A stretch of 64,000 nucleotides of DNA from Hyperoodon ampullatus. Taxonomy: Eukaryota; Chordata; Mammalia; Artiodactyla; Ziphiidae. The notes beneath the pieces were generated by a model. The model ran no database searches. It saw only the letters and a program-made list of their open reading frames with translations, and had not been told where the DNA came from. Location of the stretch: assembly GCA_949752795.1 (NCBI GenBank), contig CATKHW010000058.1, positions 496,001 to 560,000 on the forward strand, given 5' to 3'. The position numbers and the translations under genes were made by a program. This document shows, piece by piece, positions 1-58,705 of this stretch; positions within the stretch are counted from its first letter, which is position 1, and every line of letters starts with the position of its first letter.

Positions 1-200
1 ACCTACACCTTCCTCAGTGAAAGGGACTCAAAACCCCATATTTCCCGCAGAGGAATATATCTGACTAGTAAGAATCTTAAAACCTATGTATTGATATGTC
101 TCCGTAAGGGAATCAAGTGTGTCTAGACTGGGATAAATATGGCAGCGAGAATCAGCTCAAACCCACTATAAAAAGGAATTTCAAAAATAAAACAAAAAAA

Positions 201-737
201 CTGGGAAATTCTTTACAATTCCTTCAGGGTCTCTGATGAAACCTGAAATGACCCTATCTACAATGACAGCTGGATGTGGCATAAGGCTGGACACTTGGGA
301 CTGAGAGGATTGGTGAGATTGGGTGAGCAAATGCAGACCCTTTAAAGCAATAATGCATGGCACACATTCCATGGGTCCCAACTCTCCAGGTTGAAGGGAA
401 TATTACTACAGATATAACATGTACGGGAATCCTAGAGAACGGACACACTGTGAATACGAAAGGTTTCTAAAACTCAACGAATAGTCCCTCTCCTGGTGCT
501 CCGGTTTGACTTTCCATCTGCTTTATTATCAACCTCCCAACTTGGAGAGACAGCCCCTTTAACCTCCTGGTTCGCACAGGTTGCCAATTTGGCAGAGGAT
601 GAAAGGGAAGAGGGAGAACCAATGAGAGAGTAGCTGTTAGGCATTTGGACGGGCACATATCACTGTAATTTCCCGGCAGGAAGAAGAATTAACCAAAGTC
701 TCAGCCACCCACCGGGAATCAGTATAGATCCGGAACC
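201..737. other. Non-LINE-1 part of the monomer, unidentified (unit 1 example)
   Basis: This segment of about 535 bp lies between the A-rich LINE-1 tail (ending near 200) and the point near 738 where ORF2 homology becomes recognisable. I recognise no SINE, LTR, tRNA or protein similarity in it on either strand. Overlapping minus-strand open frames of 60-66 codons (181-381, 254-448, 467-658, 474-656) recur in nearly every unit. They overlap each other in different frames and are best read as chance frames frozen by low divergence. A 13-bp inverted repeat, arms TGCCAA and TTGGCA around one base, lies at 582-594. The segment recurs at the same offset in all 37 units. It may be the flanking DNA into which a 5'-truncated LINE-1 inserted before amplification, or a much older LINE-1 part that I cannot align by eye. 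Confidence 0.7.
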
Positions 738-747
738 AAAATTTTGG
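736..747. repeat. 12-bp palindrome at the left edge of LINE-1 homology
   Basis: CCAAAATTTTGG is a perfect 12-base palindrome, and flanking bases do not extend it. It lies where recognisable ORF2 homology begins. It is present in all units except 14, 16 and 23, where TTTT is TTGT. No function is visible; the position at the junction may be chance. Confidence 0.8.
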
Positions 748-973
748 ACTTGCGGTCAGCTCACCAAAAACGAGTTGAAAAATGGAGCTCAGGGGCACAG
801 CAATTCACAAACTGTCCGAGTAATAAAGGACAACTATCGTCCAAAAATCTGTTGAGGGAAGGCAACGAGGCGGACTTGAAAGCGAGGCAGAATAGCAGGA
901 AACAGATTTCCAGAGGTACGTTGGAATCGCCTTTAAAGCACAGGAAGAGGGGCACAACTTCGACAATGATGCA
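738..973 (+). pseudogene. LINE-1 ORF2 C-terminal remnant, part 1 (unit 1 example)
   Basis: The frame open at 744-1007 (first codon TTG, not ATG) keeps the spacing of the mammalian LINE-1 ORF2 protein upstream of its cysteine-rich C-terminus. Anchors are a KW dipeptide near residue 13, a phenylalanine near 21, a PSNKG motif near 25-29, then SRGTLES and KHRKRGTTST near 57-73. The nucleotides CACAAACTG through CCAAAAATCTG (807-850) also follow the LINE-1 pattern. Identity is low and patchy, so this is an old, dead copy. The frame runs into the left arm of the palindrome and stops inside it at 1007. The same remnant lies at the same offset in every unit. The left limit near 738 is approximate, because I cannot extend the alignment further upstream with confidence. 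Confidence 0.75.
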
Positions 974-1047
974 CTTGGCCAAAAAGGGCGTATGCGTTTT
1001 CTCCTGAATATATTCAGGAGAAAACGCATACGCCCTTTTTGGCCAAG
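974..1047. repeat. 74-bp perfect palindrome (unit 1 example)
   Basis: Two 37-base arms with no spacer meet between 1010 and 1011. Reading inward, the left arm holds CTTGGCCAAAAAGGGCG, then TATGCG, TTTTCTCC and TGAATA, and the right arm is its exact reverse complement. Such a sequence can extrude as a cruciform or fold as a hairpin. It sits exactly where LINE-1 ORF2 homology is interrupted, with LINE-1-like sequence resuming by about 1058. All 37 units carry it at offset +973 (+974 in units with the extra A in the tail). Nineteen units are perfect over all 74 bases (1, 3-6, 8, 10-12, 18, 22, 26, 28-34). The other 18 have one or two mismatches or a small deletion. Confidence 0.98.
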
Positions 1048-1579
1048 CAAGCAAGTGGGCAATGCAAATCTGCACTACAAAGAAGTATCACTTCCCACCG
1101 GTCAAAAGGGACATCCACAAAATGTGTAAAAACCAGAAAGGCAAGACAGGCCCTGGAGAACAGGGAGCCTTGTTATGCTGATGGGCGGGATGTAAATTGC
1201 CAACTGCCTCTCTGGAGGAGTGCATTGTGTTCCCTAAAACAAGTAAACAACAGAGCTACAGAGCCAAGGGCACTTCCAGTCTAGGGAATATACCTTGGGA
1301 AAACTGAAAATCAAAAAGACACAGCCACCCCGAAATTTAGGGCTGCACTGCTTACAAGGACCTCAACTTGGGTACACCTTAAATATCCCAGGAAATATAA
1401 AAATGGTTCAAAAAATTGTGGTACTTACGTACGATGGAATATCCCTCAGCCATGAAATCAATGTCATAAGACCAGTAGCAGCAAAATGGGTGGATTCAGG
1501 TACGATGATTCTAAGTGAAATAAGTCACACAGAAAAAGAAACTTATCATAAGATATCACTTATGAAGATCCTGTAAACA
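1048..1579 (+). pseudogene. LINE-1 ORF2 C-terminal remnant, part 2 (unit 1 example)
   Basis: After the palindrome, the frame 1039-1284 follows the ORF2 C-terminus: a QCKSALQRSITSHR stretch, then residues leading to LPLWRS, which matches the conserved PLWKS-type motif, and ALPV directly before TAG at 1282-1284. Codons after the TAG continue in the same frame as GIYLG, then KDTATPKFRAALLT. The TAG therefore replaces an ordinary codon, and a frameshift follows between about 1365 and 1430. The frame 1295-1576 (TTG first codon) then carries the true C-terminal end: WVDSGTMILSEIS, then ETYHKISL, and the stop. The cysteine/histidine cluster expected before the PLW motif has largely lost its cysteines. 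Stop, frameshift and lost cysteines rule out a working protein. In B-type units and units 4 and 26 the last frame is further shortened or lost. Confidence 0.85.
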
Positions 1580-1919
1580 TGGCTACACTTGAACTGAGTT
1601 AAGAAAGAGAACAGTGTCTCACATTTAGAAAACACTCTTATGCCTGCTTAAGGGGGAAGGAGAGGTGGGGTGATGCATAAAACCAGAGTTTGATATAAGC
1701 ACAGGTACCGTTCCAAAAACCAACTATGGAATAGACAAGACCTACACCTTCCTCAGTGAAAGGGACTCAAAACCCCATATTTCCCGCAGAGGAGTATATC
1801 TGACTAGTAAGAATCTTAAAACCTATGTATTGATATGTCTCCGTAAGGGAATCAAGTGTGTCTAGACTGGGATAAATATGGCAGCGAGAATCAGCTCAAA
1901 CCCACTATAAAAAGGAATT
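1577..1919 (+). other. LINE-1 3' UTR remnant (crosses the unit 1/unit 2 border)
   Basis: From the ORF2-derived stop at 1574-1576 the sequence follows the 3' UTR layout of cetartiodactyl-type LINE-1. There is a CTTATG..CTGC..AAGGGGGAAGGAG purine-rich stretch near 1637-1662, then GATGCATAAAACCAGAGTTTG, a GGAATAGACAAGACCTACAC stretch near 1729-1748 resembling the usual aacaaggacctac motif, and AAGAATCTTAAAACC near 1809-1823. CCACTATAAAAAGG and AATTTCAAAAATAAAAC precede the tail. The match is by recalled pattern, not computed. Because LINE-1 3' UTRs differ between mammalian orders, this stretch carries most of the taxonomic signal and should be the first part searched. It recurs at every unit border. 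Confidence 0.75.
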
Positions 1920-3478
1920 TCAAAAATAAAACAAAAAAACTGGGAAATTCTTTACAATTCCTTCAGGGTCTCTGATGAAACCTGAAATGACCCTATCTAC
2001 AATGACAGCTGGATGTGGCATAAGGCTGGACACTTGGGACTGAGAGGATTGGTGAGATTGGGTGAGCAAATGCAGACCCTTTAAAGCAATAATGCATGGC
2101 ACACATTCCATGGGTCCCAACTCTCCAGGTTGAAGGGAATATTACTACAGATATAACATGTACGGGAATCCTAGAGAACGGACACACTGTGAATACGAAA
2201 AGTTTCTAAAACTCAACGAATAGTCCCTCTCCTGGTGCTCCGGTTTGACTTTCCATCTGCTTTATTATCAACCTCCCAACTTGGAGAGACAGCCCCTTTA
2301 ACCTCCTGGTTCGCACAGGTTGCCAATTTGGCAGAGGATGAAAGGGAAGAGGGAGAACCAATGAGAGAGTAGCTGTTAGGCATTTGGACGGGCACATATC
2401 ACTGTAATATCCCGGCAGGAAGAAGAATTAACCAAAGTCTCAGCCACCCACCGGGAATCAGTATAGATCCTGAACCAAAATTTTGGACTTGCGGTCAGCT
2501 CACCAAAAACGAGTTGAAAAATGGAGCTCAGGGGCACAGCAATTCACAAACTGGCCGAGTAATAAAGGACAACTATCGTCCAAAAATCTGTTGAGGGAAG
2601 GCAACGAGGCGGACTTGAAAGCGAGGCAGAATAGCAGGAAACAGATTTCCAGAGGTACGTTGGAATCGCCTTTAAAGCACAGGAAGAGGGGCACAACTTC
2701 GACAATGATGCACTTGGCCAAAAAGGGCGTATGCGTTTTCTCCTGAATATATTCAGGAGAAAACGCATACGCCCTTTTTGACCAAGCAAGCAAGCGGGCA
2801 ATGCAAATCTGCACTACAAAGAAGTATCACTTCCCACCGGTCAAAAGGGACATCCACAAAATGTGTAAAAACCAGAAAGGCAAGACAGGCCCTGGAGAAC
2901 AGGGAGCCTTGTTATGCTGATGGGCGGGATGTAAATTGCCAACTGCCTCTCTGGAGGAGTGCATTGTGTTCCCTAAAACAAGTAAACAACAGAGCTACAG
3001 AGCCAAGGGCACTTCCAGTCTAGGGAATATACCTTGGGAAAACTGAAAATCAAAAAGACACAGCCACCCCAAAATTTAGGGCTGCACTGCTTACAAGGAC
3101 CTCAACTTGGGTACACCTTAAATATCCCAGGAAATATAAAAATGGTTCAAAAAATTGTGGTACTTACGTACGATGGAATATCCCTCAGCCATGAAATCAA
3201 TGTCATAAGACCAGTAGCAGCAAAATGGGTGGATTCAGGTACGATGATTCTAAGTGAAATAAGTCACACAGAAAAAGAAACTTATCATAAGATATCACTT
3301 ATGAAGATCCTGTAAACATGGCTACACTTGAACTGAGTTAGGAAAGAGAACAGTGTCTCACATTTAGAAAACACTCTTATGCCTGCTTAAGGGGGAAGGA
3401 GAGGTGGGGTGATGCATAAAACCAGAGTTTGATATAAGCACAGGTACCGTTCCAAAAACCAACTATGGAATAGACAAG
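1740..3478 (+). repeat. Satellite unit 2 (A-type)
   Basis: 1,739 bp. Shares GAGGAGTATAT near 1790 with unit 4 and TAATATCCC near 2405 with units 28 and 34. The palindrome at 2713-2786 has one right-arm change (TTGACC for TTGGCC), the state seen again in units 9, 14, 16, 19-21 and 23-25. Confidence 0.97.
1920..1939 (+). repeat. Internal A-rich tract, relic LINE-1 poly(A) tail
   Basis: AAAAATAAAAC followed by seven A and CTGGG marks the end of LINE-1 homology in each unit (183-200 in unit 1). Several allelic states exist. Most units have a T after five A and a run of seven A. Units 8, 9, 16, 18 and 19 have a G within the A run. Units 6 and 12 have C in place of the T with seven A. Units 28, 33, 34, 36 and 37 have the C and a run of eight A, which lengthens those monomers by 1 bp. 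A relic tail inside every monomer indicates that a LINE-1 3' end was captured first and then amplified. Confidence 0.85.
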
Positions 3479-5215
3479 ACCTACACCTTCCTCAGTGAAA
3501 GGGACTCAAAACCCCATATTTCCCGCAGAGGAATATATCTGACTAGTAAGAATCTTAAAACCTATGTATTGATATGTCTCCGTAAGGGAATCAAGTGTGT
3601 CTAGACTGGGATAAATATGGCAGCGAGAATCAGCTCAAACCCACTATAAAAAGGAATTTCAAAAATAAAACAAAAAAACTGGGAAATTCTTTACAATTCC
3701 TTCAGGGTCTCTGATGAAACCTGAAATGACCCTATCTACAATGACAGCTGGATGTGGCATAAGGCTGGACACTTGGGACTGAGAGGATTGGTGAGATTGG
3801 GTGAGCAAATGCAGACCCTTTAAAGCAATAATGCATGGCACACATTCCATGGGTCCCAACTCTCCAGGTTGAAGGGAATATTACTACAGATATAACATGT
3901 ACGGGAATCCTAGAGAACGGACACACTGTGAATACGAAAGGTTTCTAAAACTCAACGAATAGTCCCTCTCCTGGTGCTCCGGTTTGACTTTCCATCTGCT
4001 TTATTATCAACCTCCCAACTTGGAGAGACAGCCCCTTTAACCTCCTGGTTCGCACAGGTTGCCAATTTGGCAGAGGATGAAAGGGAAGAGGGAGAACCAA
4101 TGAGAGAGTAGCTGTTAGGCATTTGGACGGGCACATATCACTGTAATTTCCCGGCAGGAAGAAGAATTAACCAAAGTCTCAGCCACCCACCGGGAATCAG
4201 TATAGATCCGGAACCAAAATTTTGGACTTGCGGTCAGCTCACCAAAAACGAGTTGAAAAATGGAGCTCAGGGGCACAGCAATTCACAAACTGGCCGAGTA
4301 ATAAAGGACAACTATCGTCCAAAAATCTGTTGAGGGAAGGCAACGAGGCGGACTTGAAAGCGAGGCAGAATAGCAGGAAACAGATTTCCAGAGGTACGTT
4401 GGAATCGCCTTTAAAGCACAGGAAGAGGGGCACAACTTCGACAATGATGCACTTGGCCAAAAAGGGCGTATGCGTTTTCTCCTGAATATATTCAGGAGAA
4501 AACGCATACGCCCTTTTTGGCCAAGCAAGCAATCGGGCAATGCAAATCTGCACTACAAAGAAGTATCACTTCCCACCGGTCAAAAGGGACATCCACAAAA
4601 TGTAAAAACCAGAAAGGCAAGACAGGCCCTGGAGAACAGGGAGCCTTGTTATGCTGATGGGCGGGATGTAAATTGCCAACTGCCTCTCTGGAGGAGTGCA
4701 TTGTGTTCCCTAAAACAAGTAAACAACAGAGCTACAGAGCCAAGGGCACTTCCAGTCTAGGGAATATACCTTGGGAAAACTGAAAATCAAAAAGACACAG
4801 CCACCCCGAAATTTAGGGCTGCACTGCTTACAAGGACCTCAACTTGGGTACACCTTAAATATCCCAGGAAATATAAAAATGGTTCAAAAAATTGTGGTAC
4901 TTACGTACGATGGAATATCCCTCAGCCATGAAATCAATGTCATAAGACCAGTAGCAGCAAAATGGGTGGATTCAGGTACGATGATTCTAAGTGAAATAAG
5001 TCACACAGAAAAAGAAACTTATCATAAGATATCACTTATGAAGATCCTGTAAACATGGCTACACTTGAACTGAGTTAAGAAAGAGAACAGTGTCTCACAT
5101 TTAGAAAACACTCTTATGCCTGCTTAAGGAGGAAGGAGAGGTGGGGTGATGCATAAAACCAGAGTTTGATATAAGCACAGGTACCGTTCCAAAAACCAAC
5201 TATGGAATAGACAAG
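3479..5215 (+). repeat. Satellite unit 3 (A-type, 2-bp deletion)
   Basis: 1,737 bp. One TG of AATGTGTAAAAACC is lost near 4601, which joins reading frames and makes an artefactual 96-codon frame at 4470-4760. Also AATCGGGC near 4531 and TAAGGAGGAAG near 5127 (shared with unit 4). The palindrome at 4452-4525 is perfect. Confidence 0.97.
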
Positions 5216-6954
5216 ACCTACACCTTCCTCAGTGAAAGGGACTCAAAACCCCATATTTCCCGCAGAGGAGTATATCTGACTAGTAAGAATCTTAAAACCT
5301 ATGTATTGATATGTCTCCGTAAGGGAATCAAGTGTGTCTAGACTGGGATAAATATGGCAGCGAGAATCAGCTCAAACCCACTATAAAAAGGAATTTCAAA
5401 AATAAAACAAAAAAACTGGGAAATTCTTTACAATTCCTTCAGGGTCTCTGATGAAACCTGAAATGACCCTATCTACAATGACAGCTGGATGTGGCATAAG
5501 GCTGGACACTTGGGACTGAGAGGATTGGTGAGATTGGGTGAGCAAATGCAGACCCTTTAAAGCAATAATGCATGGCACACATTCCATGGGTCCCAACTCT
5601 CCAGGTTGAAGGGAATATTACTACAGATATAACATGTACGGGAATCCTAGAGAACGGACACACTGTGAATACGAAAGGTTTCTAAAACTCAACGAATAGT
5701 CCCTCTCCTGGTGCTCCGGTTTGACTTTCCATCTGCTTTATTATCAACCTCCCAACTTGGAGAGACAGCCCCTTTAACCTCCTGGTTCGCACAGGTTGCC
5801 AATTTGGCAGAGGATGAAAGGGAAGAGGGAGAACCAATGAGAGAGTAGCTGTTAGGCATTTGGACGGGCACATATCACTGTAATTTCCCGGCAGGAAGAA
5901 GAATTAACCAAAGTCTCAGCCACCCACCGGGAATCAGTATAGATCCTGAACCAAAATTTTGGACTTGCGGTCAGCTCACCAAAAACGAGTTGAAAAATGG
6001 AGCTCAGGGGCACAGCAATTCACAAACTGGCCGAGTAATAAAGGACAACTATCGTCCAAAAATCTGTTGAGGGAAGGCAACGAGGCGGACTTGAAAGCGA
6101 GGCAGAATAGCAGGAAACAGATTTCCAGAGGTACGTTGGAATCGCCTTTAAAGCACAGGAAGAGGGGCACAACTTCGACAATGATGCACTTGGCCAAAAA
6201 GGGCGTATGCGTTTTCTCCTGAATATATTCAGGAGAAAACGCATACGCCCTTTTTGGCCAAGCAAGCAAGCGGGCAATGCAAATCTGCACTACAAAGAAG
6301 TATCACTTCCCACCAGTCAAAAGGGACATCCACAAAGTGTGTAAAAACCAGAAAGGCAAGACAGGCCCTGGAGAACAGGGAGCCTTGTTATGCTGATGGG
6401 CGGGATGTAAATTGCCAACTGCCTCTCTGGAGGAGTGCATTGTGTTCCCTAAAACAAGTAAACAACAGAGCTACAGAGCCAAGGGCACTTCCAGTCTAGG
6501 GAATATACCTCGGGAAAACTGAAAATCAAAAAGACACAGCCACCCCAAAATTTAGGGCTGCACTGCTTACAAGGACCTCAACTTGGGTACACCTTAAATA
6601 TCCCAGGAAATATAAAAATGGTTCAAAAAATTGTGGTACTTACGTACGATGGAATATCCCTCAGCCATGAAATCAATGTCATAAGACCAGTAGCAGCAAA
6701 ATGGGTGGATTCAGGTACGATGATTCTAAGTGAAATAAGTCACACAGAAAAAGAAACTTATCATAAGATATCACTTATGAAGATCCTGTAAACATGGCTA
6801 CACTTGAACTGAGTTAGGAAAGAGAACAGTGTCTCACATTTAGAAAACACTCTTATGCCTGCTTAAGGAGGAAGGAGAGGTGGGGTGATGCATAAAACCA
6901 GAGTTTGATATAAGCACAGGTACCGTTCCAAAAACCAACTATGGAATAGACAAG
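5216..6954 (+). repeat. Satellite unit 4 (A-type)
   Basis: 1,739 bp. Has GAGGAGTATAT, CCACCAGTC near 6310 (CpG lost from the usual CCACCGGTC), CACAAAGTGTG near 6331 and CCTCGGG near 6508, which removes the TTG that otherwise opens the last ORF2-derived frame. The palindrome at 6189-6262 is perfect. Confidence 0.97.
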
Positions 6955-8693
6955 ACCTACACCTTCCTCAGTGAAAGGGACTCAAAACCCCATATTTCCC
7001 GCAGAGGAATATATCTGACTAGTAAGAACCTTAAAACCTATGTATTGATATGTCTCCGTAAGGGAATCAAGTGTGTCTAGACTGGGATAAATATGGCAGC
7101 GAGAATCAGCTCAAACCCACTATAAAAAGGAATTTCAAAAATAAAACAAAAAAACTGGGAAATTCTTTACAATTCCTTCAGGGTCTCTGATGAAACCTGA
7201 AATGACCCTATCTACAATGACAGCTGGATGTGGCATAAGGCTGGACACTTGGGACTGAGAGGATTGGTGAGATTGGGTGAGCAAATGCAGACCCTTTAAA
7301 GCAATAATGCATGGCACACATTCCATGGGTCCCAACTCTCCAGGTTGAAGGGAATATTACTACAGATATAACATGTACGGGAATCCTAGAGAACGGACAC
7401 ACTGTGAATACGAAAGGTTTCTAAAACTCAACGAATAGTCCCTCTCCTGGTGCTCCGGTTTGACTTTCCATCTGCTTTATTATCAACCTCCCAACTTGGA
7501 GAGACAGCCCCTTTAACCTCCTGGTTCGCACAGGTTGCCAATTTGGCAGAGGATGAAAGGGAAGAGGGAGAACCAATGAGAGAGTAGCTGTTAGGCATTT
7601 GGACGGGCACATATCACTGTAATTTCCCGGCAGGAAGAAGAATTAACCAAAGTCTCAGCCACCCACCGGGCATCAGTATAGATCCTGAACCAAAATTTTG
7701 GACTTGCGGTCAGCTCACCAAAAACGAGTTGAAAAATGGAGCTCAGGGGCACAGCAATTCACAAACTGGCCGAGTAATAAAGGACAACTATCGTCCAAAA
7801 ATCTGTTGTGGGAAGGCAACGAGGCGGACTTGAAAGCGAGGCAGAATAGCAGGAAACAGATTTCAAGAGGTACGTTGGAATCGCCTTTAAAGCACAGGAA
7901 GAGGGGCACAACTTCGACAATGATGCACTTGGCCAAAAAGGGCGTATGCGTTTTCTCCTGAATATATTCAGGAGAAAACGCATACGCCCTTTTTGGCCAA
8001 GCAAGCAAGCGGGCAATGCAAATCTGCACTACAAAGAAGTATCACTTCCCACCGGTCAAAAGGGACATCCACAAAATGTGTAAAAACCAGAAAGGCAAGA
8101 CAGGCCCTGGAGAACAGGGAGCCTTGTTATGCTGATGGGCGGGATGTAAATTGCCAACTGCCTCTCTGGAGGAGTGCATTGTGTTCCCTAAAACAAGTAA
8201 ACAACAGAGCTACAGAGCCAAGGGCACTTCCAGTCTAGGGAATATACCTGGGAAAAATTGAAAATCAATAAGACAGAGCCACCCCAAAATTTAGGGCTGC
8301 ACTGCTTACAAGGACCTCAACTTGGGTACACCTTAAATATCCCAGGAAATATAAAATTGGTTGAAAAAATTGTGGTACTTACGTACGATGGAATATCCCT
8401 CAGCCATGAAATCAATGTCATAAGACCAGTAGCAGCAAAATGGGTGGATTCAGGTACGATGATTCTAAGTGAAATAAGTCACAGAGAAAAAGAAACTTAT
8501 CATAAGTTATCACTTATGAAGATCCTGTAAACATGGCTACACTTGAACTGAGTTAGGAAAGAGAACAGTGTCTCACATTTAGAAAACACTCTTATGCCTG
8601 CTTAAGGGGGAAGGAGAGGTGGGGTGATGCATAAAACCAGAGTTTGATATAAGCACAGGTACCGTTCCAAAAACCAACTATGGAATAGACAAG
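6955..8693 (+). repeat. Satellite unit 5 (A-type with B-like 3' tract)
   Basis: 1,739 bp. Has AAGAACCTT near 7024, GGGCATCAG near 7668 (shared with unit 10) and a private TTGTGGGAAGG near 7806. From about 8249 it switches to B-like sequence (CTGGGAAAAATTG, AATAAGACAGAG, TTGGTTGAAAA, CATAAGTTATC). Unit 11 has the same switch. The palindrome at 7928-8001 is perfect. Confidence 0.97.
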
Positions 8694-8990
8694 ACCTACA
8701 CCTTCCTCAGTGAAAGGGACTCAAAACCCCATATTTCCCGCAGAGGAATATATCTGACTAGTAAGAATCTTAAAACCTATGTATTGATATGTCTCCGTAA
8801 GGGAATCAAGTGTGTCTAGACTGGCATAAACATCGCAGCGAGAATCAGCTCAAACCCACTATAAAAAGGAATTTCAAAAACAAAACAAAAAAACTGGGAA
8901 ATTCTTTACAATTCCTTCAGGGTCTCTGATGAAACCTGAAATGACCCTATCTACAATGACAGCTGGATGTGGCATAAGTCTGGACACTTA
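8249..8990 (+). repeat. B-like tract across units 5/6
   Basis: Starts at CTGGGAAAAATTG and ends by CACTTAGGACTG. Linked B-like states through the ORF2 end, 3' UTR and A-tail include AATAAGACAGAG, TTGGTTGAAAA, GTCACAGAG, CATAAGTTATC, GGCATAAACAT and AAAAACAAAAC. The tail is A7, not A8, and GGTACC is kept, so it is a sub-variant of B. A second copy lies exactly 10,434 bp downstream. Confidence 0.85.
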
Positions 8991-10432
8991 GGACTGAGAG
9001 GATTGGTGAGATTGGGTGAGCAAATGCAGACCCTTTAAAGCAATAATGCATGGCACACATTCCATGGGTCCCAACTCTCCAGGTTGAAGGGAATATTACT
9101 ACAGATATAACATGTACGGGAATCCTAGAGAACGGACACACTGTGAATACGAAAGGTTTCTAAAACTCAACGAATAGTCCCTCTCCTGGTGCTCCGGTTT
9201 GACTTTCCATCTGCTTTATTATCAACCTCCCAACTTGGAGAGACAGCCCCTTTAACCTCCTGGTTCGCACAGGTTGCCAATTTGGCAGAGGATGAAAGGG
9301 AAGAGGGAGAACCAATGAGAGAGTAGCTGTTAGGCATTTGGACGGGCACATATCACTGTAATTTCCCGGCAGGAAGAAGAATTAACCAAAGTCTCAGCCA
9401 CCCACCGGGAATCAGTATAGATCCTGAACCAAAATTTTGGACTTGCGGTCAGCTCACCAAAAACGAGTTGAAAAATGGAGCTCAGGGGCACAGCAATTCA
9501 CAAACTGGCCGAGTAATAAAGGACAACTATCGTCCAAAAATCTGTTGAGGGAAGGCAACGAGGCGGACTTGAAAGCGAGGCAGAATAGCAGGAAACAGAT
9601 TTCAAGAGGTACGTTGGAATCGCCTTTAAAGCACAGGAAGAGGGGCACAACTTCGACAATGATGCACTTGGCCAAAAAGGGCGTATGCGTTTTCTCCTGA
9701 ATATATTCAGGAGAAAACGCATACGCCCTTTTTGGCCAAGCAAGCAAGCGGGCAATGCAAATCTGCACTACAAAGAAGTATCACTTCCGACCGGTCAAAA
9801 GGGACATCCACAAAATGTGTAAAAACCAGAAAGGCAAGACAGGCCCTGGAGAACAGGGAGCCTTGTTATGCTGATGGGCGGGATGTAAATTGCCAACTGC
9901 CTCTCTGGAGGAGTGCATTGTGTTCCCTAAAACAAGTAAACAACAGAGCTACAGAGCCAAGGGCACTTCCAGTCTAGGGAATATACCTTGGGAAAACTGA
10001 AAATCAAAAAGACACAGCCACCCCGAAATTTAGGGCTGCACTGCTTACAAGGACCTCAACTTGGGTACACCTTAAATATCCCAGGAAATATAAAAATGGT
10101 TCAAAAAATTGTGGTACTTACGTACGATGGAATATCCCTCAGCCATGAAATCAATGTCATAAGACCAGTAGCAGCAAAATGGGTGGATTCAGGTACGATG
10201 ATTCTAAGTGAAATAAGTCACACAGAAAAAGAAACTTATCATAAGATATCACTTATGAAGATCCTGTAAACATGGCTACACTTGAACTGAGTTAGGAAAG
10301 AGAACAGTGTCTCACATTTAGAAAACACTCTTATGCCTGCTTAAGGGGGAAGGAGAGGTGGGGTGATGCATAAAACCAGAGTTTGATATAAGCACAGGTA
10401 CCGTTCCAAAAACCAACTATGGAATAGACAAG
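8694..10432 (+). repeat. Satellite unit 6 (B-like 5' tract, then A-type)
   Basis: 1,739 bp. The B-like tract continues from unit 5 through GGCATAAACAT near 8823, AAAAACAAAAC and CACTTAGGACTG near 8986. Private changes are AACATCGCAGC and CATAAGTCTGG. The rest is A-type with CTTCCGACCGG near 9785 and CCCCGAAATT near 10021. The palindrome at 9667-9740 is perfect. Confidence 0.97.
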
Positions 10433-12171
10433 ACCTACACCTTCCTCAGTGAAAGGGACTCAAAACCCCATATTTCCCGCAGAGGAATATATCTGACAAG
10501 TAAGAATCTTAAAACCTATGTATTGATATGTCTCCGTAAGGGAATCAAGTGTGTCTAGACTGGGATAAATATGGCAGCGAGAATCAGCTCAAACCCACTA
10601 TAAAAAGGAATTTCAAAAATAAAACAAAAAAACTGGGAAATTCTTTACAATTCCTTCAGGGTCTCTGATGAAACCTGAAATGACCCTATCTACAATGACA
10701 GCTGGATGTGGCATAAGGCTGGACACTTGGGACTGAGAGGATTGGTGAGATTGGGTGAGCAAATGCAGACCCTTTAAAGCAATAATGCATGGCACACATT
10801 CCATGGGTCCCAACTCTCCAGGTTGAAGGGAATATTACTACAGATATAACATGTACGGGAATCCTAGAGAACGGGCACACTGTGAATACGAAAGGTTTCT
10901 AAAACTCAACGAATAGTCCCTCTCCTGGTGCTCCGGTTTGACTTTCCATCTGCTTTATTATCAACCTCCCAACTTGGAGAGACAGCCCCTTTAACCTCCT
11001 GGTTCGCACAGGTTGCCAATTTGGCAGAGGATGAAAGGGAAGAGGGAGAACCAATGAGAGAGTAGCTGTTAGGCATTTGGACGGGCACATATCACTGTAA
11101 TTTCCCGGCAGGAAGAAAAATTAACCAAAGTCTCAGCCACCCACCGGGAATCAGTATAGATCCTGAACCAAAATTTTGGACTTGCGGTCAGCTCACCAAA
11201 AACGAGTTGAAAAATGGAGCTCAGGGGCACAGCAATTCACAAACTGGCCGAGTAATAAAGGACAACTATCGTCCAAAAATCTGTTGAGGGAAGGCAACGA
11301 GGCGGACTTGAAAGCGAGGCAGAATAGCAGGAAACAGATTTCAAGAGGTACGTTGGAATCGCCTTTAAAGCACAGGAAGAGGGGCACAACTTCGACAATG
11401 ATGCACTTGGCCAAAAAGGGCGTATGCGTTTTCTCCTGAATATATTTAGGAGAAAACGCATACGCCCTTTTTGGCCAAGCAAGCAAGCGGGCAATGCAAA
11501 TCTGCACTACAAAGAAGTATCACTTCCGACCGGTCAAAAGGGACATCCACAAAATGTGTAAAAACCAGAAAGGCAAGACAGGCCCTGGAGAACAGGGAGC
11601 CTTGTTATGCTGATGGGCGGGATGTAAATTGCCAACTGCCTCTCTGGAGGAGTGCATTGTGTTCCCTAAAACAAGTAAAGAACAGAGCTACAGAGCCAAG
11701 GGCACTTCCAGTCTAGGGAATATACCTTGGGAAAACTGAAAATCAAAAAGACACAGCCACCCCAAAATTTAGGGCTGCACTGCTTACAAGGACCTCAACT
11801 TGGGTACACCTTAAATATCCCAGGAAATATAAAAATGGTTCAAAAAATTGTGGTACTTACGTACGATGGAATATCCCTCAGCCATGAAATCAATGTCATA
11901 AGACCAGTAGCAGCAAAATGGGTGGATTCAGGTACGATGATTCTAAGTGAAATAAGTCACACAGAAAAAGAAACTTATCATAAGATATCACTTATGAAGA
12001 TCCTGTAAACATGGCTACACTTGAACTGAGTTAGGAAAGAGAACAGTGTCTCTCATTTAGAAAACACTCTTATGCCTGCTTAAGGGGGAAGGAGAGGTGG
12101 GGTGATGCATAAAACCAGAGTTTGATATAAGCACAGGTACCGTTCCAAAAACCAACTATGGAATAGACAAG
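10433..12171 (+). repeat. Satellite unit 7 (A-type, haplotype shared with units 15 and 17)
   Basis: 1,739 bp. Carries seven linked variants found together only in units 7, 15 and 17: GACAAGTAAG, ACGGGCACAC, GAAGAAAAATT, a TTTAGGAG palindrome mismatch, CTTCCGACC, AGTAAAGAAC and GTCTCTCATTT. The palindrome at 11406-11479 has one mismatch just right of its centre. Confidence 0.97.
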
Positions 12172-13910
12172 ACCTACACCTTCCTCAGTGAAAGGGACTC
12201 AAAACCCCATATTTCCCGCAGAGGAATATATCTGACTAGTAAGAACCTTAAAACCTATGTATTGATATGTCTCCGTAAGGGAATCAAGTGTGTCTAGACT
12301 GGGATAAATATGGCAGTGAGAATCAGCTCAAACCCACTATAAAAAGGAATTTCAAAAATAAAACAAAGAAACTGGGAAATTCTTTACAATTCCTTCAGGG
12401 TCTCTGATGAAACCTGAAATGACCCTATCTACAATGACAGCTGGATGTGGCATAAGGCTGGACACTTGGGACTGAGAGGATTGGTGAGATTGGGTGAGCA
12501 AATGCAGACCCTTTAAAGCAATAATGCATGGCACACATTCCATGGGTCCCAACTCTCCAGGTTGAAGGGAATATTACTACAGATATAACATGTACGGGAA
12601 TCCTAGAGAACGGACACACTGTGAATACGAAAGGTTTCTAAAACTCAACGAATAGTCCCTCTCCTGGTGCTCCGGTTTGACTTTCCATCTGCTTTATTAT
12701 CAACCTCCCAACTTGGAGAGACAGCCCCTTTAACCTCCTGGTTCGCACAGGTTGCCAATTTGGCAGAGGATGAAAGGGAAGAGGGAGAACCAATGAGAGA
12801 GTAGCTGTTAGGCATTTGGACGGGCACATATCACTGTAATTTCCCGGCAGGAAGAAGAATTAACCAAAGTCTCAGCCACCCACCGGGAATCAGTATAGAT
12901 CCTGAACCAAAATTTTGGACTTGCGGTCAGCTCACCAAAAACGAGTTGAAAAATGGAGCTCAGGGGCACAGCAATTCACAAACTGGCCGAGTAATAAAGG
13001 ACAACTATCGTCCAAAAATCTGTTGAGGGAAGGCAACGAGGCGGACTTGAAAGCGAGGCAGAATAGCAGGAAACAGATTTCAAGAGGTACGTTGGAATCG
13101 CCTTTAAAGCACAGGAAGAGGGGCACAACTTCGACAATGATGCACTTGGCCAAAAAGGGCGTATGCGTTTTCTCCTGAATATATTCAGGAGAAAACGCAT
13201 ACGCCCTTTTTGGCCAAGCAAGCAAGCGGGCAATGCAAATCTGCACTACAAAGAAGTATCACTTCCCACCGGTCAAAAGGGACATCCACAAAATGTGTAA
13301 AAACCAGAAAGGCAAGACAGGCCCTGGAGAACAGGGAGCCTTGTTATGCTGATGGGCGGGACGTAAATTGCCAACTGCCTCTCTGGAGGACTGCATTGTG
13401 TTCCCTAAAACAAGTAAACAACAGAGCTACAGAGCCAAGGGCACTTCCAGTCTAGGGAATATACCTTGGGAAAACTGAAAATCAAAAAGACACAGCCACC
13501 CCAAAATTTAGGGCTGCACTGCTTACAAGGACCTCAACTTGGGTACACCTTAAATATCCCAGGAAATATAATAATGGTTCAAAAAATTGCGGTACTTACG
13601 TACGATGGAATATCCCTCAGCCATGAAATCAATGTCATAAGACCAGTAGCAGCAAAATGGGTGGATTCAGGTACGATGATTCTAAGTGAAATAAGTCACA
13701 CAGAAAAAGAAACTTATCATAAGATATCACTTATGAAGATCCTGTAAACATGGCTACACTTGAACTGAGTTAGGAAAGAGAACAGTGTCTCACATTTAGA
13801 AAACACTCTTATGCCTGCTTAAGGGGGAAGGAGAGGTGGGGTGATGCATAAAACCAGAGTTTGATATAAGCACAGGTACCGTTCCAAAAACCAACTATGG
13901 AATAGACAAG
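12172..13910 (+). repeat. Satellite unit 8 (A-type, pairs with unit 18)
   Basis: 1,739 bp. Has AACAAAGAAACTGG near 12363, GAGGACTGCATTG near 13387 and ATATAATAATGG near 13566, the last two shared only with unit 18. Private GGCAGTGAG near 12312, GGGACGTAAA and ATTGCGGTAC. The palindrome at 13145-13218 is perfect. Confidence 0.97.
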
Positions 13911-15649
13911 ACCTACACCTTCCTCAGTGAAAGGGACTCAAAACCCCATATTTCCCGCAGAGGAATATATCTGACTAGTAAGAACCTTAAAACCTATGTA
14001 TTGATATGTCTCCGTAAGGGAATCAAGTGTGTCTAGACTGGGATAAATATGGCAGCGAGAATCAGCTCAAACCCACTATAAAAAGGAATTTCAAAAATAA
14101 AACAAAGAAACTGGGAAATTCTTTACAATTCCTTCAGGGTCTCTGATGAAACCTGAAATGACCCTATCTACAATGACAGCTGGATGTGGCATAAGGCTGG
14201 ACACTTGGGACTGAGAGGATTGGTGAGATTGGGTGAGCAAATGCAGACCCTTTAAAGCAATAATGCATGGCACACATTCCATGGGTCCCAACTCTCCAGG
14301 TTGAAGGGAATATTACTACAGATATAACATGTACGGGAATCCTAGAGAACGGACACACTGTGAATACGAAAGGTTTCTAAAACTCAACGAATAGTCCCTC
14401 TCCTGGTGCTCCGGTTTGACTTTCCATCTGCTTTATTATCAACCTCCCAACTTGGAGAGACAGCCCCTTTAACCTCCTGGTTCGCACAGGTTGCCAATTT
14501 GGCAGAGGATGAAAGGGAAGAGGGAGAACCAATGAGAGAGTAGCTGTTAGGCATTTGGACGGGCACATATCACTGTAATTTCCCGGCAGGAAGAAGAATT
14601 AACCAAAGTCTCAGCCACCCACCGGGAATCAGTATAGATCCTGAACCAAAATTTTGGACTTGCGGTCAGCTCACCAAAAACGAGTTGAAAAATGGAGCTC
14701 AGGGGCACAGCAATTCACAAACTGGCCGAGTAATAAAGGACAACTATCGTCCAAAAATCTGTTGAGGGAAGGCAACGAGGCGGACTTGAAAGCGAGGCAG
14801 AATAGCAGGAAACAGATTTCCAGAGGTACGTTGGAATCGCCTTTAAAGCACAGGAAGAGGGGCACAACTTCGACAATGATGCACTTGGCCAAAAAGGGCG
14901 TATGCGTTTTCTCCTGAATATATTCAGGAGAAAACGCATACGCCCTTTTTGACCAAGCAAGCAAGCGGGCAATGCAAATCTGCACTACAAAGAAGTATCA
15001 CTTCCCACCGGTCAAAAGGGACATCCACAAAATGTGTAAAAACCAGAAAGGCAAGACAGGCCCTGGAGAACAGGGAGCCTTGTTATGCTGATGGGTGGGA
15101 TGTAAATTGCCAACTGCCTCTCTGGAGGAGTGCATTGTGTTCCCTAAAACAAGTAAACAACAGAGCTACAGAGCCAAGGGCACTTCCAGTCTAGGGAATA
15201 TACCTTGGGAAAACTGAAAATCAAAGAGACACAGCCACCCCAAAATTTAGGGCTGCACTGCTTACAAGGACCTCAACTTGGGTACACCTTAAATATCCCA
15301 GGAAATATAAAAATGGTTCAAAAAATTGTGGTACTTACGTACGATGGAATATCCCTCAGCCATGAAATCAATGTCATAAGACCAGTAGCAGCAAAATGGG
15401 TGGATTCAGGTACGATGATTCTAAGTGAAATAAGTCACACAGAAAAAGAAACTTATCATAAGATATCACTTATGAAGATCCTGTAAACATGGCTACACTT
15501 GAACTGAGTTAGGAAAGAGAACAGTGTCTCACATTTAGAAAACACTCTTATGCCTGCTTAAGGGGGAAGGAGAGGTGGGGTGATGCATAAAACCAGAGTT
15601 TGATATAAGCACAGGTACCGTTCCAAAAACCAACTATGGAATAGACAAG
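13911..15649 (+). repeat. Satellite unit 9 (A-type, pairs with unit 19)
   Basis: 1,739 bp. Shares AACAAAGAAAC, the TTGACC palindrome change and ATCAAAGAGACAC with unit 19; the last two also occur in units 20, 21, 23 and 24. Private GATGGGTGGGATG near 15090, a CpG loss. Palindrome at 14884-14957. Confidence 0.97.
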
Positions 15650-17388
15650 ACCTACACCTTCCTCAGTGAAAGGGACTCAAAACCCCATATTTCCCGCAGA
15701 GGAATATATCTGACTAGTAAGAACCTTAAAACCTATGTATTGATATGTCTCCGTAAGGGAATCAAGTGTGTCTAGACTGGGATAAATATGGCAGCGAGAA
15801 TCAGCTCAAACCCACTATAAAAAGGAATTTCAAAAATAAAACAAAAAAACTGGGAAATTCTTTACAATTCCTTCAGGGTCTCTGATGAAACCTGAAATGA
15901 CCCTATCTACAATGACAGCTGGATGTGGCATAAGGCTGGACACTTGGGACTGAGAGGATTGGTGAGATTGGGTGAGCAAATGCAGACCCTTTAAAGCAAT
16001 AATGCATGGCACACATTCCATGGGTCCCAACTCTCCAGGTTGAAGGGAATATTACTACAGATATAACATGTACGGGAATCCTAGAGAACGGACACACTGT
16101 GAATACGAAAGGTTTCTAAAACTCAACGAATAGTCCCTCTCCTGGTGCTCCGGTTTGACTTTCCATCTGCTTTATTATCAACCTCCCAACTTGGAGAGAC
16201 AGCCCCTTTAACCTCCTGGTTCGCACAGGTTGCCAATTTGGCAGAGGATGAAAGGGAAGAGGGAGAACCAATGAGAGAGTAGCTGTTAGGCATTTGGACG
16301 GGCACATATCACTGTAATTTCCCGGCAGGAAGAAGAATTAACCAAAGTCTCAGCCACCCACCGGGCATCAGTATAGATCCTGAACCAAAATTTTGGACTT
16401 GCGGTCAGCTCACCAAAAACGAGTTGAAAAATGGAGCTCAGGGGCACAGCAATTCACAAACTGGCCGAGTAATAAAGGACAACTATCGTCCAAAAATCTG
16501 TTGAGGGAAGGCAACGAGGTGGACTTGAAAGCGAGGCAGAATAGCAGGAAACAGATTTCAAGAGGTACGTTGGAATCGCCTTTAAAGCACAGGAAGAGGG
16601 GCACAACTTCGACAATGATGCACTTGGCCAAAAAGGGCGTATGCGTTTTCTCCTGAATATATTCAGGAGAAAACGCATACGCCCTTTTTGGCCAAGCAAG
16701 CAAGCGGGCAATGCAAATCTGCACTACAAAGAAGTATCACTTCCGACCGGTCAAAAGGGACATCCACAAAATGTGTAAAAACCAGAAAGGCAAGACAGGC
16801 CCTGGAGAACAGGGAGCCTTGTTATGCTGATGGGCGGGATGTAAATTGCCAACTGCCTCTCTGGAGGAGTGCATTGTGTTCCCTAAAACAAGTAAACAAC
16901 AGAGCTACAGAGCCAAGGGCACTTCCAGTCTAGGGAATATACCTTGGGAAAACTGAAAATCAAAAAGACACAGCCACCCCAAAATTTAGGGCTGCACTGC
17001 TTACAAGGACCTCAACTTGGGTACACCTTAAATATCCCAGGAAATATAAAAATGGTTCAAAAAATTGTGGTACTTACGTACGATGGAATATCCCTCAGCC
17101 ATGAAATCAATGTCATAAGACCAGTAGCAGCAAAATGGGTGGATTCAGGTACGATGATTCTAAGTGAAATAAGTCACACAGAAAAAGAAACTTATCATAA
17201 GATATCACTTATGAAGATCCTGTAAACATGGCTACACTTGAACTGAGTTAGGAAAGAGAACAGTGTCTCACATTTAGAAAACACTCTTATGCCTGCTTAA
17301 GGGGGAAGGAGAGGTGGGGTGATGCATAAAACCAGAGTTTGATATAAGCACAGGTACCGTTCCAAAAACCAACTATGGAATAGACAAG
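15650..17388 (+). repeat. Satellite unit 10 (A-type)
   Basis: 1,739 bp. Has GGGCATCAG near 16364 (as unit 5), GAGGTGGAC near 16516 (as unit 13) and CTTCCGACCGG. The palindrome at 16623-16696 is perfect. Confidence 0.97.
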
Positions 17389-19127
17389 ACCTACACCTTC
17401 CTCAGTGAAAGGGACTCAAAACCCCATATTTCCCGCAGAGGAATATATCTGACTAGTAAGAACCTTAAAACCTATGTATTGATATGTCTCCGTAAGGGAA
17501 TCAAGTGTGTCTAGACTGGGATAAATATGGCAGCGAGAATCAGCTCAAACCCACTATAAAAAGGAATTTCAAAAATAAAACAAAAAAACTGGGAAATTCT
17601 TTACAATTCCTTCAGGGTCTCTGATGAAACCTGAAATGACCCTATCTACAATGACAGCTGGATGTGGCATAAGGCTGGACACTTGGGACTGAGAGGATTG
17701 GTGAGATTGGGTGAGCAAATGCAGACCCTTTAAAGCAATAATGCATGGCACACATTCCATGGGTCCCAACTCTCCAGGTTGAAGGGAATATTACTACAGA
17801 TATAACATGTACGGGAATCCTAGAGAACGGACACACTGTGAATACGAAAGGTTTCTAAAACTCAACGAATAGTCCCTCTCCTGGTGCTCCGGTTTGACTT
17901 TCCATCTGCTTTATTATCAACCTCCCAACTTGGAGAGACAGCCCCTTTAACCTCCTGGTTCTCACAGGTTGCCAATTTGGCAGAGGATGAAAGGGAAGAG
18001 GGAGAACCAATGAGAGAGTAGCTGTTAGGCATTTGGACGGGCACATATCACTGTAATTTCCCGGCAGGAAGAAGAATTAACCAAAGTCTCAGCCACCCAC
18101 CGGGAATCAGTATAGATCCTGAACCAAAATTTTGGACTTGCGGTCAGCTCACCAAAAACGAGTTGAAAAATGGAGCTCAGGGGCACAGCAATTCACAAAC
18201 TGGCCGAGGAATAAAGGACAACTATCGTCCAAAAATCTGTTGAGGGAAGGCAACGAGGCGGACTTGAAAGCGAGGCAGAATAGCAGGAAACAGATTTCAA
18301 GAGGTACGTTGGAATCGCCTTTAAAGCACAGGAAGAGGGGCACAACTTCGACAATGATGCACTTGGCCAAAAAGGGCGTATGCGTTTTCTCCTGAATATA
18401 TTCAGGAGAAAACGCATACGCCCTTTTTGGCCAAGCAAGCAAGCGGGCAATGCAAATCTGCACTACAAAGAAGTATCACTTCCCACCGGTCAAAAGGGAC
18501 ATCCACAAAATGTGTAAAAACCAGAAAGGCAAGACAGGCCCTGGAGAACAGGGAGCCTTGTTATGTTGATGGGCGGGATGTAAATTGCCAACTGCCTCTC
18601 TGGAGGAGTGCATTGTGTTCCCTAAAACAAGTAAACAACAGAGCTACAGAGCCAAGGGCACTTCCAGTCTAGGGAATATACCTGGGAAAAATTGAAAATC
18701 AATAAGACAGAGCCACCCCAAAATTTAGGGCTGCACTGCTTACAAGGACCTCAACTTGGGTACACCTTAAATATCCCAGGAAATATAAAATTGGTTGAAA
18801 AAATTGTGGTACTTACGTACGATGGAATATCCCTCAGCCATGAAATCAATGTCATAAGACCAGTAGCAGCAAAATGGGTGGATTCAGGTACGATGATTCT
18901 AAGTGAAGTAAGTCACAGAGAAAAAGAAACTTATCATAAGTTATCACTTATGAAGATCCTGTAAACATGGCTACACTTGAACTGAGTTAGGAAAGAGAAC
19001 AGTGTCTCACATTTAGAAAACACTCTTATGCCTGCTTAAGGGGGAAGGAGAGGTGGGGTGATGCATAAAACCAGAGTTTGATATAAGCACAGGTACCGTT
19101 CCAAAAACCAACTATGGAATAGACAAG
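17389..19127 (+). repeat. Satellite unit 11 (A-type with B-like 3' tract)
   Basis: 1,739 bp. Private GGTTCTCACAGG near 17957 and CGAGGAATAAAGG near 18205. Has TATGTTGATGG near 18562 and switches to the B-like tract from about 18682, exactly six units after the same switch in unit 5. The palindrome at 18362-18435 is perfect. Confidence 0.97.
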
Positions 19128-19425
19128 ACCTACACCTTCCTCAGTGAAAGGGACTCAAAACCCCATATTTCCCGCAGAGGAATATATCTGACTAGTAAGA
19201 ATCTTAAAACCTATGTATTGATATGTCTCCGTAAGGGAATCAAGTGTGTCTAGACTGGCATAAACATGGCAGCGAGAATCAGCTCAAACCCACTATAAAA
19301 AGGAATTTCAAAAACAAAACAAAAAAACTGGGAAATTCTTTACAATTCCTTCAGGGTCTCTGATGAAACCTGAAATGACCCTATCTACAATGACAGCTGG
19401 ATGTGGCATAAGGCTGGACACTTAG
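18682..19425 (+). repeat. B-like tract across units 11/12
   Basis: Same tract as at 8249-8990, with the same TTGGTTGAAAA and CACTTAGGACTG states found nowhere else in the window. It differs by AGTGAAGTAAG near 18901 and an intact CATGGCAGCG. The six-unit offset suggests a block duplication later blurred by conversion. Confidence 0.85.
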
Positions 19426-20866
19426 GACTGAGAGGATTGGTGAGATTGGGTGAGCAAATGCAGACCCTTTAAAGCAATAATGCATGGCACACATTCCATG
19501 GGTCCCAACTCTCCAGGTTGAAGGGAATATTACTACAGATATAACATGTACGGGAATCCTAGAGAACGGACACACTGTGAATACGAAAGGTTTCTAAAAC
19601 TCAACGAATAGTCCCTCTCCTGGTGCTCCGGTTTGACTTTCCATCTGCTTTATTATCAACCTCCCAACTTGGAGAGACAGCCCCTTTAACCTCCTGGTTC
19701 GCACAGGTTGCCAATTTGGCAGAGGATGAAAGGGAAGAGGGAGAACCAATGAGAGAGTAGCTGTTAGGCATTTGGACGGGCACATATCACTGTAATTTCC
19801 CGGCAGGAAGAAGAATTAACCAAAGTCTCAGCCACCCACCGGGAATCAGTATAGATCCTGAACCAAAATTTTGGACTTGCGGTCAGCTCACCAAAAACGA
19901 GTTGAAAAATGGAGCTCAGGGGCACAGCAATTCACAAACTGGCCGAGTAATAAAGGACAACTATCGTCCAAAAATCTGTTGAGGGAAGGCAACGAGGCGG
20001 ACTTGAAAGCGAGGCAGAATAGCAGGAAACAGATTTCAAGAGGTACGTTGGAATCGCCTTTAAAGCACAGGAAGAGGGGCACAACTTCGACAATGATGCA
20101 CTTGGCCAAAAAGGGCGTATGCGTTTTCTCCTGAATATATTCAGGAGAAAACGCATACGCCCTTTTTGGCCAAGCAAGCAAGCGGGCAATGCAAATCTGC
20201 ACTACAAAGAAGTATCACTTCCCACCGGTCAAAAGGGACATCCACAAAATGTGTAAAAACCAGAAAGGCAAGACAGGCCCTGGAGAACAGGGAGCCTTGT
20301 TATGCTGATGGGCGGGATGTAAATTGCCAACTGCCTCTCTGGAGGAGTGCATTGTGTTCCCTAAAACAAGTAAACAACAGAGCTACAGAGCCAAGGGCAC
20401 TTCCAGTCTAGGGAATATACCTTGGGAAAACTGAAAATCAATAAGACACAGCCACCCCAAAATTTAGGGCTGCACTGCTTACAAGGACCTCAACTTGGGT
20501 ACACCTTAAATATCCCAGGAAATATAAAAATGGTTCAAAAAATTGTGGTACTTACGTACGATGGAATATACCTCAGCCATGAAATCAATGTCATAAGACC
20601 AGTAGCAGCAAAATGGGTGGATTCAGGTACGATGATTCTAAGTGAAATAAGTCACACAGAAAAAGAAACTTATCATAAGATATCACTTATGAAGATCCTG
20701 TAAACATGGCTACACTTGAACTGAGTTAGGAAAGAGAACAGTGTCTCACATTTAGAAAACACTCTTATGCCTGCTTAAGGGGGAAGGAGAGGTGGGGTGA
20801 TGCATAAAACCAGAGTTTGATATAAGCACAGGTACCGTTCCAAAAACCAACTATGGAATAGACAAG
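19128..20866 (+). repeat. Satellite unit 12 (B-like 5' tract, then A-type)
   Basis: 1,739 bp. Continues the B-like tract (GGCATAAACATGG near 19257, CACTTAGGACTG near 19420). The A-type 3' half has an isolated ATCAATAAGACACAG near 20427 and a private GAATATACCTC near 20565. The palindrome at 20101-20174 is perfect. Confidence 0.97.
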
Positions 20867-48500: not shown

Positions 48501-48686
48501 TATCACTTATGAAGATCCTGTAAACATGGCTACACTTGAACTGAGTTAGGAAAGAGAACAGTGTCTCACATTTAGAAAACACTCTTATGCCTGCTTAAGG
48601 GGGAAGGAGAGGTGGGGTGATGCATAAAACCAGAGTTTGATATAAGCACAGGTACCGTTCCAAAAACCAACTATGGAATAGACAAG
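46947..48686 (+). repeat. Satellite unit 28 (B-type)
   Basis: 1,740 bp with the A8 tail. Shares CAACGCTCC near 47328 and TAATATCCC near 47614 with unit 34, and CTAATACAAG near 48182 with unit 35. B-type to about 48500, then GGTACCG near 48652 returns to the A state. The palindrome at 47921-47994 is perfect. Confidence 0.97.
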
Positions 48687-58600: not shown

Positions 58601-58705
58601 GAGTGCATTGTGTTCCCTAAAACAAGTAAACAACAGAGCTACAGAGCCAAGGGCACTTCCAGTCTAGGGAATATACCTGGGAAAAACTGAAAATCAATAA
58701 GACAG
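55608..58705 (+). repeat. B-type tract, end of unit 32 to unit 34
   Basis: Begins at GGTCCCG in the last 40 bases of unit 32 and ends after ACAGAGCC in unit 34, where AAAATGGTTC and CATAAGATATC mark the return to A. Both borders lie inside monomers rather than at a fixed site. Confidence 0.85.
55643..57382 (+). repeat. Satellite unit 33 (B-type)
   Basis: 1,740 bp. Full B set: GGCATAAACATGG, AAAAACAAAAC with A8, TATGTTGATGG, CTGGGAAAAACTG, ACAGAGCC, CATAAGTTATC, GGTCCCG. The palindrome at 56617-56690 is perfect. Confidence 0.97.

What the first reader, a model, noticed from the sequence alone, without database searches (positions are those of the whole stretch)
974..1047. A 74-bp perfect palindrome in every monomer, placed inside LINE-1 sequence
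Each unit carries two 37-base arms with no spacer, exactly where ORF2 homology breaks. Long spacerless palindromes are normally unstable, yet 19 of 37 copies are perfect and the rest nearly so. It gives one potential cruciform every 1.74 kb over at least 64 kb, which could favour breakage, recombination or array amplification, or mark a binding site.
Basis: partly seen in the sequence, partly recalled or inferred. Interest (0 to 1): 0.8.

Follow-up and report, generated by a model that had tools for sequence, protein, structure and literature searches.

The report
Conserved palindrome inside whale-type satellite
Every unit of this whale-type tandem repeat, itself partly made from an old LINE-1 element, carries an inserted DNA palindrome, and related repeats that have drifted apart elsewhere still keep it, which hints that it does something, although what it does is not shown.

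Summary
In detail: 37 of 37 copies in this head-to-tail array (about 1739 bp per unit) carry the spacerless palindrome, 19 perfect at 74 bp. A frameshift-tolerant alignment to LINE-1 ORF2 proteins shows that homology does not end there. It is interrupted by exactly 84 nt (972-1055), between codons for STSLII and REMQIK, and resumes in frame. None of the 107 LINE-1 proteins that cover the site, of 120 listed, has an insertion.

Relatives: 43 cleanly aligned ORFs, of 56 hits in unnamed metagenome contigs, form two diverged families. Between their consensuses 1 of 24 whole palindrome codons differs against 13 of 49 flank codons (one-sided p 0.019). If a boundary codon that changes the outermost base is added, it is 2 of 25 (p 0.053). 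The one inner change may be paired (one fairly clear and one partial read). So the insertion predates the family split and is probably constrained. Within the array it is no less variable than the rest, and substitutions are one-sided. No target-site duplication, CENP-B box or miRNA family was found. Function is inferred: a dyad read as structure or protein site.

The parts
1..64000 (+). Head-to-tail satellite array: 36 full monomers and one partial, 29 of 36 exactly 1739 bp
   Evidence: Anchor scan and monomer alignment
1..1739 (+). First monomer, used as coordinate frame; the consensus has the same length
972..1055 (+). 84-nt insertion relative to LINE-1 ORF2: CA + 74-bp palindrome + CAAGCAAG
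   Evidence: Frameshift-tolerant profile alignment places one 84-nt gap here; tblastn with P0074 and P0048 gives the same 28-codon gap
974..1010 (+). Left arm of the palindrome (37 nt)
1011..1047 (+). Right arm of the palindrome (37 nt)
855..971 (+). ORF2-derived sequence upstream of the insertion (ends KHRKRGTTSTMM, matching RHMKRCSTSLII)
   Evidence: colinear match reached by 1 of 5000 dinucleotide shuffles
1056..1564 (+). ORF2-derived sequence downstream of the insertion, resuming in the same frame at REMQIK, with stops and three frameshifts
46186..46254 (+). Copy with a 5-nt central deletion: 34-nt arms, 1-nt spacer
60096..60164 (+). Second copy with the same 5-nt central deletion

Best explanation
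The monomer holds a degenerate piece of a LINE-1 element (end of ORF2) and founded a long-unit satellite of the common cetacean satellite type. Before the satellite split into the families now seen, an 84-bp piece holding a spacerless palindrome was inserted into the ORF2-derived part. It has since been kept, as a sequence and as a dyad, while its surroundings drifted. The most likely reason is that it acts in cis as a dyad signal of the array, read by a heterochromatin, centromere or replication protein either as a symmetric binding site or as an extruded hairpin or cruciform. Shown here: the palindrome, the insertion, its absence from the LINE-1 proteins examined, and its sharing by diverged families. 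Supported but not firm: lower divergence than its flanks, and one paired change of both arms. Inferred: cruciform formation, the reader protein and any effect on the array.
For: 37 of 37 copies carry it. An 84-nt gap interrupts ORF2 homology that continues in frame on both sides (upstream part 1 of 5000 shuffles). 107 of 107 LINE-1 proteins covering the site lack it. 56 homologous ORFs were found in other contigs. In the 43 clean rows, whole palindrome codons differ between family consensuses at 1 of 24 and flank codons at 13 of 49 with the boundary codon left out (one-sided Fisher p 0.019; counting that codon as flank gives 14 of 50, p 0.014). Rows of the diverged family c2 differ from the query at 89 of 792 palindrome residues and 592 of 1592 flank residues. 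29 of 33 c2 rows share at least 3 five-residue words outside the palindrome, and the contrast stays in them (82/696 against 538/1450). In the c2 consensus the inner 36 pairs can all be complementary, and 11 of 35 pairs are fully resolved and complementary. The one inner family difference (S to F codon, right arm) is met by F in the left arm in P0180 (fairly clear) and P0179 (partial).
Against: The boundary codon differs between families by a change of the outermost palindrome base (pair 37); counted as palindrome, the contrast is 2 of 25 against 13 of 49, p 0.053. Within the array the palindrome is not less variable than the rest (0.0062 against 0.0045 per site), and 4 of 4 substituted pair positions are changed on one side only. 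In c1 rows the palindrome is hardly less variable than the flanks (27/240 against 65/490). Single metagenome copies carry unpaired private changes: 29 of 43 rows have a forced mismatch inside pair 37 (41 of 43 with pair 37 counted). P0178, from another variant, reads S and not F in the left arm. The comparison rests on translated ORFs from unnamed contigs found through shared words, so some bias towards the palindrome remains. The paired change is one case, and most of its pairs in c2 are ambiguous (24 of 35).
Confidence: 0.5

Rival explanations
1. Passive relic: the palindrome was inserted once in the founding monomer and spread with it; array homogenisation from few source copies keeps it intact without any function.
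For: No excess conservation within the array and no paired changes there. Near-identical monomers show ongoing copying. With the boundary codon counted in, the family contrast is only borderline (p 0.053).
Against: Homogenisation within a lineage does not lower divergence between lineages, yet the palindrome differs at 1 of 24 (or 2 of 25) codons and the flanks at 13 of 49.
Confidence: 0.32
2. Hairpin RNA source: read-through transcripts of the array form a 37-bp hairpin that is cut by Dicer or Drosha into small RNAs that silence the satellite.
For: As RNA the 74-mer folds at -64.9 kcal/mol against a mean of -15.14 for shuffles.
Against: The Rfam matches listed at this place are to unrelated hairpin-shaped families, every one below its gathering score. 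No transcription data.
Confidence: 0.08
3. The insertion is a tiny palindromic DNA transposon (MITE-like) that landed in the LINE-1 copy.
For: A discrete 84-nt insertion with inverted-repeat structure inside a foreign host sequence.
Against: No adjacent target-site duplication: the longest shared word between the 25-nt flanks is 5 nt, reached in 768 of 2000 shuffles. The arm matches nothing else in the monomer better than shuffles. No match in the viral, genome, plasmid or phage collections, which are not mammalian collections, so this says little.
Confidence: 0.05
4. The palindrome is an assembly or sequencing artefact.
For: Palindromes can be created by strand flips in assembly; three metagenome ORFs (P0162, P0170, P0173) switch strand exactly there.
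Against: Present in 37 of 37 monomers, some with private variants, and in 43 clean rows from other contigs with a right-hand flank on one side and a left-hand flank on the other.
Confidence: 0.02
5. The palindrome belonged to the parental LINE-1 subfamily.
For: It lies inside LINE-1-derived sequence.
Against: No insertion in 107 of 107 LINE-1 proteins covering the site, although these come from the 120 best listed of 7998 hits and so favour canonical elements.
Confidence: 0.03

Closest known systems
Common cetacean satellite (L1-derived; Kapitonov, Holmquist and Jurka 1998, seen only as cited in PMC9659126 and PMC6947457)
   Same: Long-unit tandem repeat derived from the 3'-terminal part of LINE-1; ORF2-end homology was found here.
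   Different: The passages read of open papers do not mention a palindrome in it. The 1985 and 1998 papers looked up are not held, so they or others may already describe it.
Dyad-symmetry or cruciform-prone centromeric satellites (PMC8997354 and PMC9070824, passages read)
   Same: Inverted repeats with cruciform potential, discussed for centromeres that lack a CENP-B box.
   Different: Those dyads are described as short (<10 bp); here it is one 74-bp perfect palindrome per 1.74 kb. The second paper finds dyads enriched only on the Y centromere of D. melanogaster, so the rule is not general. Centromere location of this array is unknown.
Palindromes and inverted repeats as frequent features of satellite monomers (PMC12628747, passages read)
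   Same: That review says satellite monomers often hold inverted repeats and palindromes, proposed as signals for repeat proliferation.
   Different: Here the palindrome is long, perfect, and a discrete insertion into a LINE-1-derived unit, compared between diverged families.
MITEs and other short inverted-repeat transposons
   Same: Short, discrete, inverted-repeat insertion.
   Different: No target-site duplication was found.
Macro-dyad symmetries of Tribolium satellites (PMC13081366, passages read)
   Same: Symmetry in satellite arrays that could form hairpins.
   Different: Those are inverted subarrays of kilobases; here the 37 monomers have one orientation and the dyad lies within the monomer.

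Membership tests
Common cetacean satellite | Tandem unit of about 1.7 kb (recalled; 1,579 bp in killer whale from a cited title) | tested here: met
   Unit 1739 bp, head to tail
Common cetacean satellite | Derived from the 3'-terminal part of LINE-1 | tested here: met
   ORF2-end homology 855-1564, interrupted once by the insertion; 3' UTR homology was not tested
Common cetacean satellite | Direct sequence match to a published cetacean monomer, and a cetacean source | not testable with these tools
   No named cetacean DNA was reached; the genome search for the window's own assembly did not complete 11 times
MITE | Target-site duplication at the insertion | tested here: not met
   Longest shared flank word 5 nt, a chance level (768 of 2000 shuffles)
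MITE | Dispersed copies elsewhere in the genome | not tested
   The genome search did not complete
CENP-B-box satellite | 17-bp CENP-B box (motif recalled) | tested here: not met
   0 matches with up to 1 mismatch in 64 kb; 4.47 expected by chance
Known miRNA precursor family | Rfam gathering score | tested here: not met
   Best 49.7 bits against a cut-off of 70
Dyad-symmetry centromere satellite | CENP-A occupancy | not testable with these tools
   No chromatin data

The most novel reading that the evidence does not exclude
A long perfect palindrome was captured by a LINE-1-derived satellite and has been held by selection for both sequence and symmetry, with paired changes of the arms, as the working element of cetacean heterochromatin: a structural or dyadic-protein signal that takes the place of the CENP-B box or drives array turnover.
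Probability: 0.18. Interest if true: 0.82.

Novelty: new variant of a known kind. Interest (0 to 1): 0.52.

Why it matters
Satellite sequences usually drift freely between lineages. A 74-bp dyad that stays nearly the same while its neighbours diverge would be a rare marker of function inside satellite DNA, and it would let the proposal that DNA shape, not sequence, recruits centromere or heterochromatin proteins be tested in whales, whose heterochromatin reaches 25-30% of the genome (figure from PMC7763226, passage read).

Tried and rejected
Origin of the arms from nearby LINE-1 or from elsewhere in the monomer: the right arm with its tail scores no better than shuffles against the upstream ORF2 profile (170 of 300 shuffles as good); a 7-residue match in another frame against the whole profile (5 of 300, and 4 of 300 for the arm alone) was judged chance among several tests. 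No match of the arm elsewhere in the monomer beats shuffles.

Single degenerate ORFs of the monomer against the PDB gave no LINE-1 match, and nine ORFs against Pfam gave one match, below its cut-off; they are decayed and frameshifted, so only the profile and tblastn approaches worked. Pfam gave no family for the recalled ORF2 piece either.

Finding mammalian LINE-1 or satellite DNA in the viral and genome collections failed (1, 14 and 55 stretches matched short patterns but none was confirmed), as did plasmids and phages. Tandem Repeats Finder found nothing because its longest period is 500.

miRNA families: shape matches only, all below gathering score. CENP-B box: absent.

Rows dropped before the family counts: 13 of 56 hits (P0133 partial; P0162, P0170, P0173 strand-switched; P0163, P0165, P0167, P0168, P0171, P0172, P0174, P0175, P0176 with frame changes or poor alignment near the palindrome). 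Some of them (P0171, for instance) hold an intact palindrome; others (P0163, P0165, P0167, P0168, P0175) hold changed or frameshifted ones, and leaving these out favours conservation to some degree. P0181 was not added to the counts.

Full report
What is there. The window is one continuous array of a 1.74-kb repeat, 36 full monomers and a partial one in a single orientation, 29 of 36 exactly 1739 bp, mean pairwise identity 99.2%. At 974-1047 of the first monomer lies a spacerless palindrome of two 37-nt arms, and the same site in 37 of 37 copies carries it, 19 perfect. The other 18 differ by one or two substitutions (15 copies), a shared 5-nt central deletion (2 copies) or a 1-nt deletion (1 copy). 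The consensus has no other spacerless palindrome with arms over 6 nt. Chance is not a serious possibility.

Where it lies. LINE-1 ORF2 proteins were gathered by searching with a recalled 182-residue ORF2 piece, whose identity was checked against solved ORF2 structures; 120 of 7998 hits are listed. tblastn of the longer ones against the monomer consensus already showed, for some of them, ORF2 similarity on both sides of the palindrome in one frame. A frameshift-tolerant alignment of a 22-protein profile places ORF2 homology at 855-971, one gap of exactly 84 nt at 972-1055, and homology again at 1056-1564, with three frameshifts further down. The upstream piece, required to end at the right place, is matched by 1 of 5000 shuffles. 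Without that requirement it is 0 of 300 for region 800-973 and 4 of 300 for the larger region 600-973, so the colinearity carries much of the weight. None of the 107 LINE-1 proteins with residues on both sides of the site has an insertion there; 13 of 120 do not cover it.

Is it kept elsewhere? The reading frame that crosses the palindrome on the minus strand is not known to code for anything, but its translation can be looked up. It found 56 relatives, 55 from ENA and one from JGI, without species names. A frame of the plus strand gave 25 hits, five of them new ids: P0177-P0180 read the plus strand and P0181 is of the minus-strand type. Of the 56, 43 align cleanly and form a family close to the window (c1, 10 rows) and a diverged family (c2, 33 rows). 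Between their consensuses 1 of 24 whole palindrome codons differs. The boundary codon, half in and half out of the palindrome, also differs, by a change of the outermost palindrome base. Leaving it out, flanks differ at 13 of 49 codons (one-sided Fisher p 0.019); counting it as flank, 14 of 50 (p 0.014); counting it as palindrome, 2 of 25 against 13 of 49 (p 0.053) or against 19 of 65 with a longer flank (p 0.026). Row by row, c2 differs from the query at 89 of 792 palindrome residues and 592 of 1592 flank residues. To check that the search itself did not select for the palindrome, I counted five-residue words shared outside it: 29 of 33 c2 rows have at least 3 and would probably have been candidates anyway; in these the palindrome differs at 82 of 696 residues and the flanks (boundary codon included) at 538 of 1450. 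Within families the contrast is weaker: 60/792 against 239/1592 in c2, and almost none in c1, 27/240 against 65/490.

Is the symmetry kept? In the c2 consensus the 36 inner pairs can all be complementary and the outermost pair 37 is broken. Of the 35 pairs lying wholly in read codons, 11 are fully resolved and complementary, 24 compatible but ambiguous, none broken. The single inner family difference is a serine-to-phenylalanine codon change in the right arm (29 of 33 c2 rows have F, 9 of 10 c1 rows S). Plus-strand reads show F in the left arm too in P0180 and P0179; P0178, another variant, has S. P0180 starts just outside the arm, and by my own back-translation (no call) its few flank bases fit the c2 left flank; its arm has changes of its own. 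P0179 has the F next to sequence unrelated to the arm. This is one probable paired change, not a pattern. Private changes are unpaired: in the window 4 of 4 substituted pair positions are one-sided, and 29 of 43 metagenome rows have a forced mismatch inside pair 37 (41 of 43 with pair 37 counted).

How it may work. Conservation of sequence as well as symmetry between families, without any sign of arm-to-arm correction inside the array, fits slow purifying selection among arrays or lineages better than a local copying mechanism. The element would then be a dyad read by a protein, or a hairpin or cruciform read as structure. The hairpin is very stable on paper (DNA -45, RNA -64.9 kcal/mol). The CENP-B box is absent, which fits the reviewed proposal that centromeres without that box rely on dyad symmetry (PMC8997354, passages read); the same idea fails for most D. 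melanogaster centromeres (PMC9070824, passages read). The location of this array on the chromosome is unknown, and one porpoise assembly paper predicts much shorter centromere monomers, 99-201 bp (PMC11403816, passages read), so a centromere role is only one option. A passive relic remains the main rival.

Against a mobile-element origin: no target-site duplication. Against a role in breakage: the only deletion at the centre is shared by two monomers that are each other's nearest neighbours, so it probably arose once.

What is known. That the common cetacean satellite resembles the 3'-terminal part of LINE-1 is published (Kapitonov and colleagues 1998, seen only as cited in PMC9659126 and PMC6947457). 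Two of the older papers were looked up and are not held, so prior description cannot be excluded.

Noticed in passing
Metagenome ORFs P0162, P0170, P0173: These three switch strand exactly at the palindrome (left-palindrome-left or right-palindrome-right). Either the assembler flipped in the self-complementary stretch or real inversions occur there.
   Followed up: partly
Window monomers starting at 10433, 24345, 27823 and at 33040, 34779, 39996: Two trios of monomers with at most one difference in the first 1404 alignment columns, a sign of recent copying within the array.
   Followed up: no
Window 181-855: None of five ORFs tested here matches a Pfam family at its cut-off (one weak match, 13.7 bits against 20.1); the origin of this part of the monomer is not settled.
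   Followed up: partly
Window 1259-1332: Among 74-nt bins of the monomer this one holds the most variation between copies (1.43 summed, next highest 0.86).
   Followed up: no
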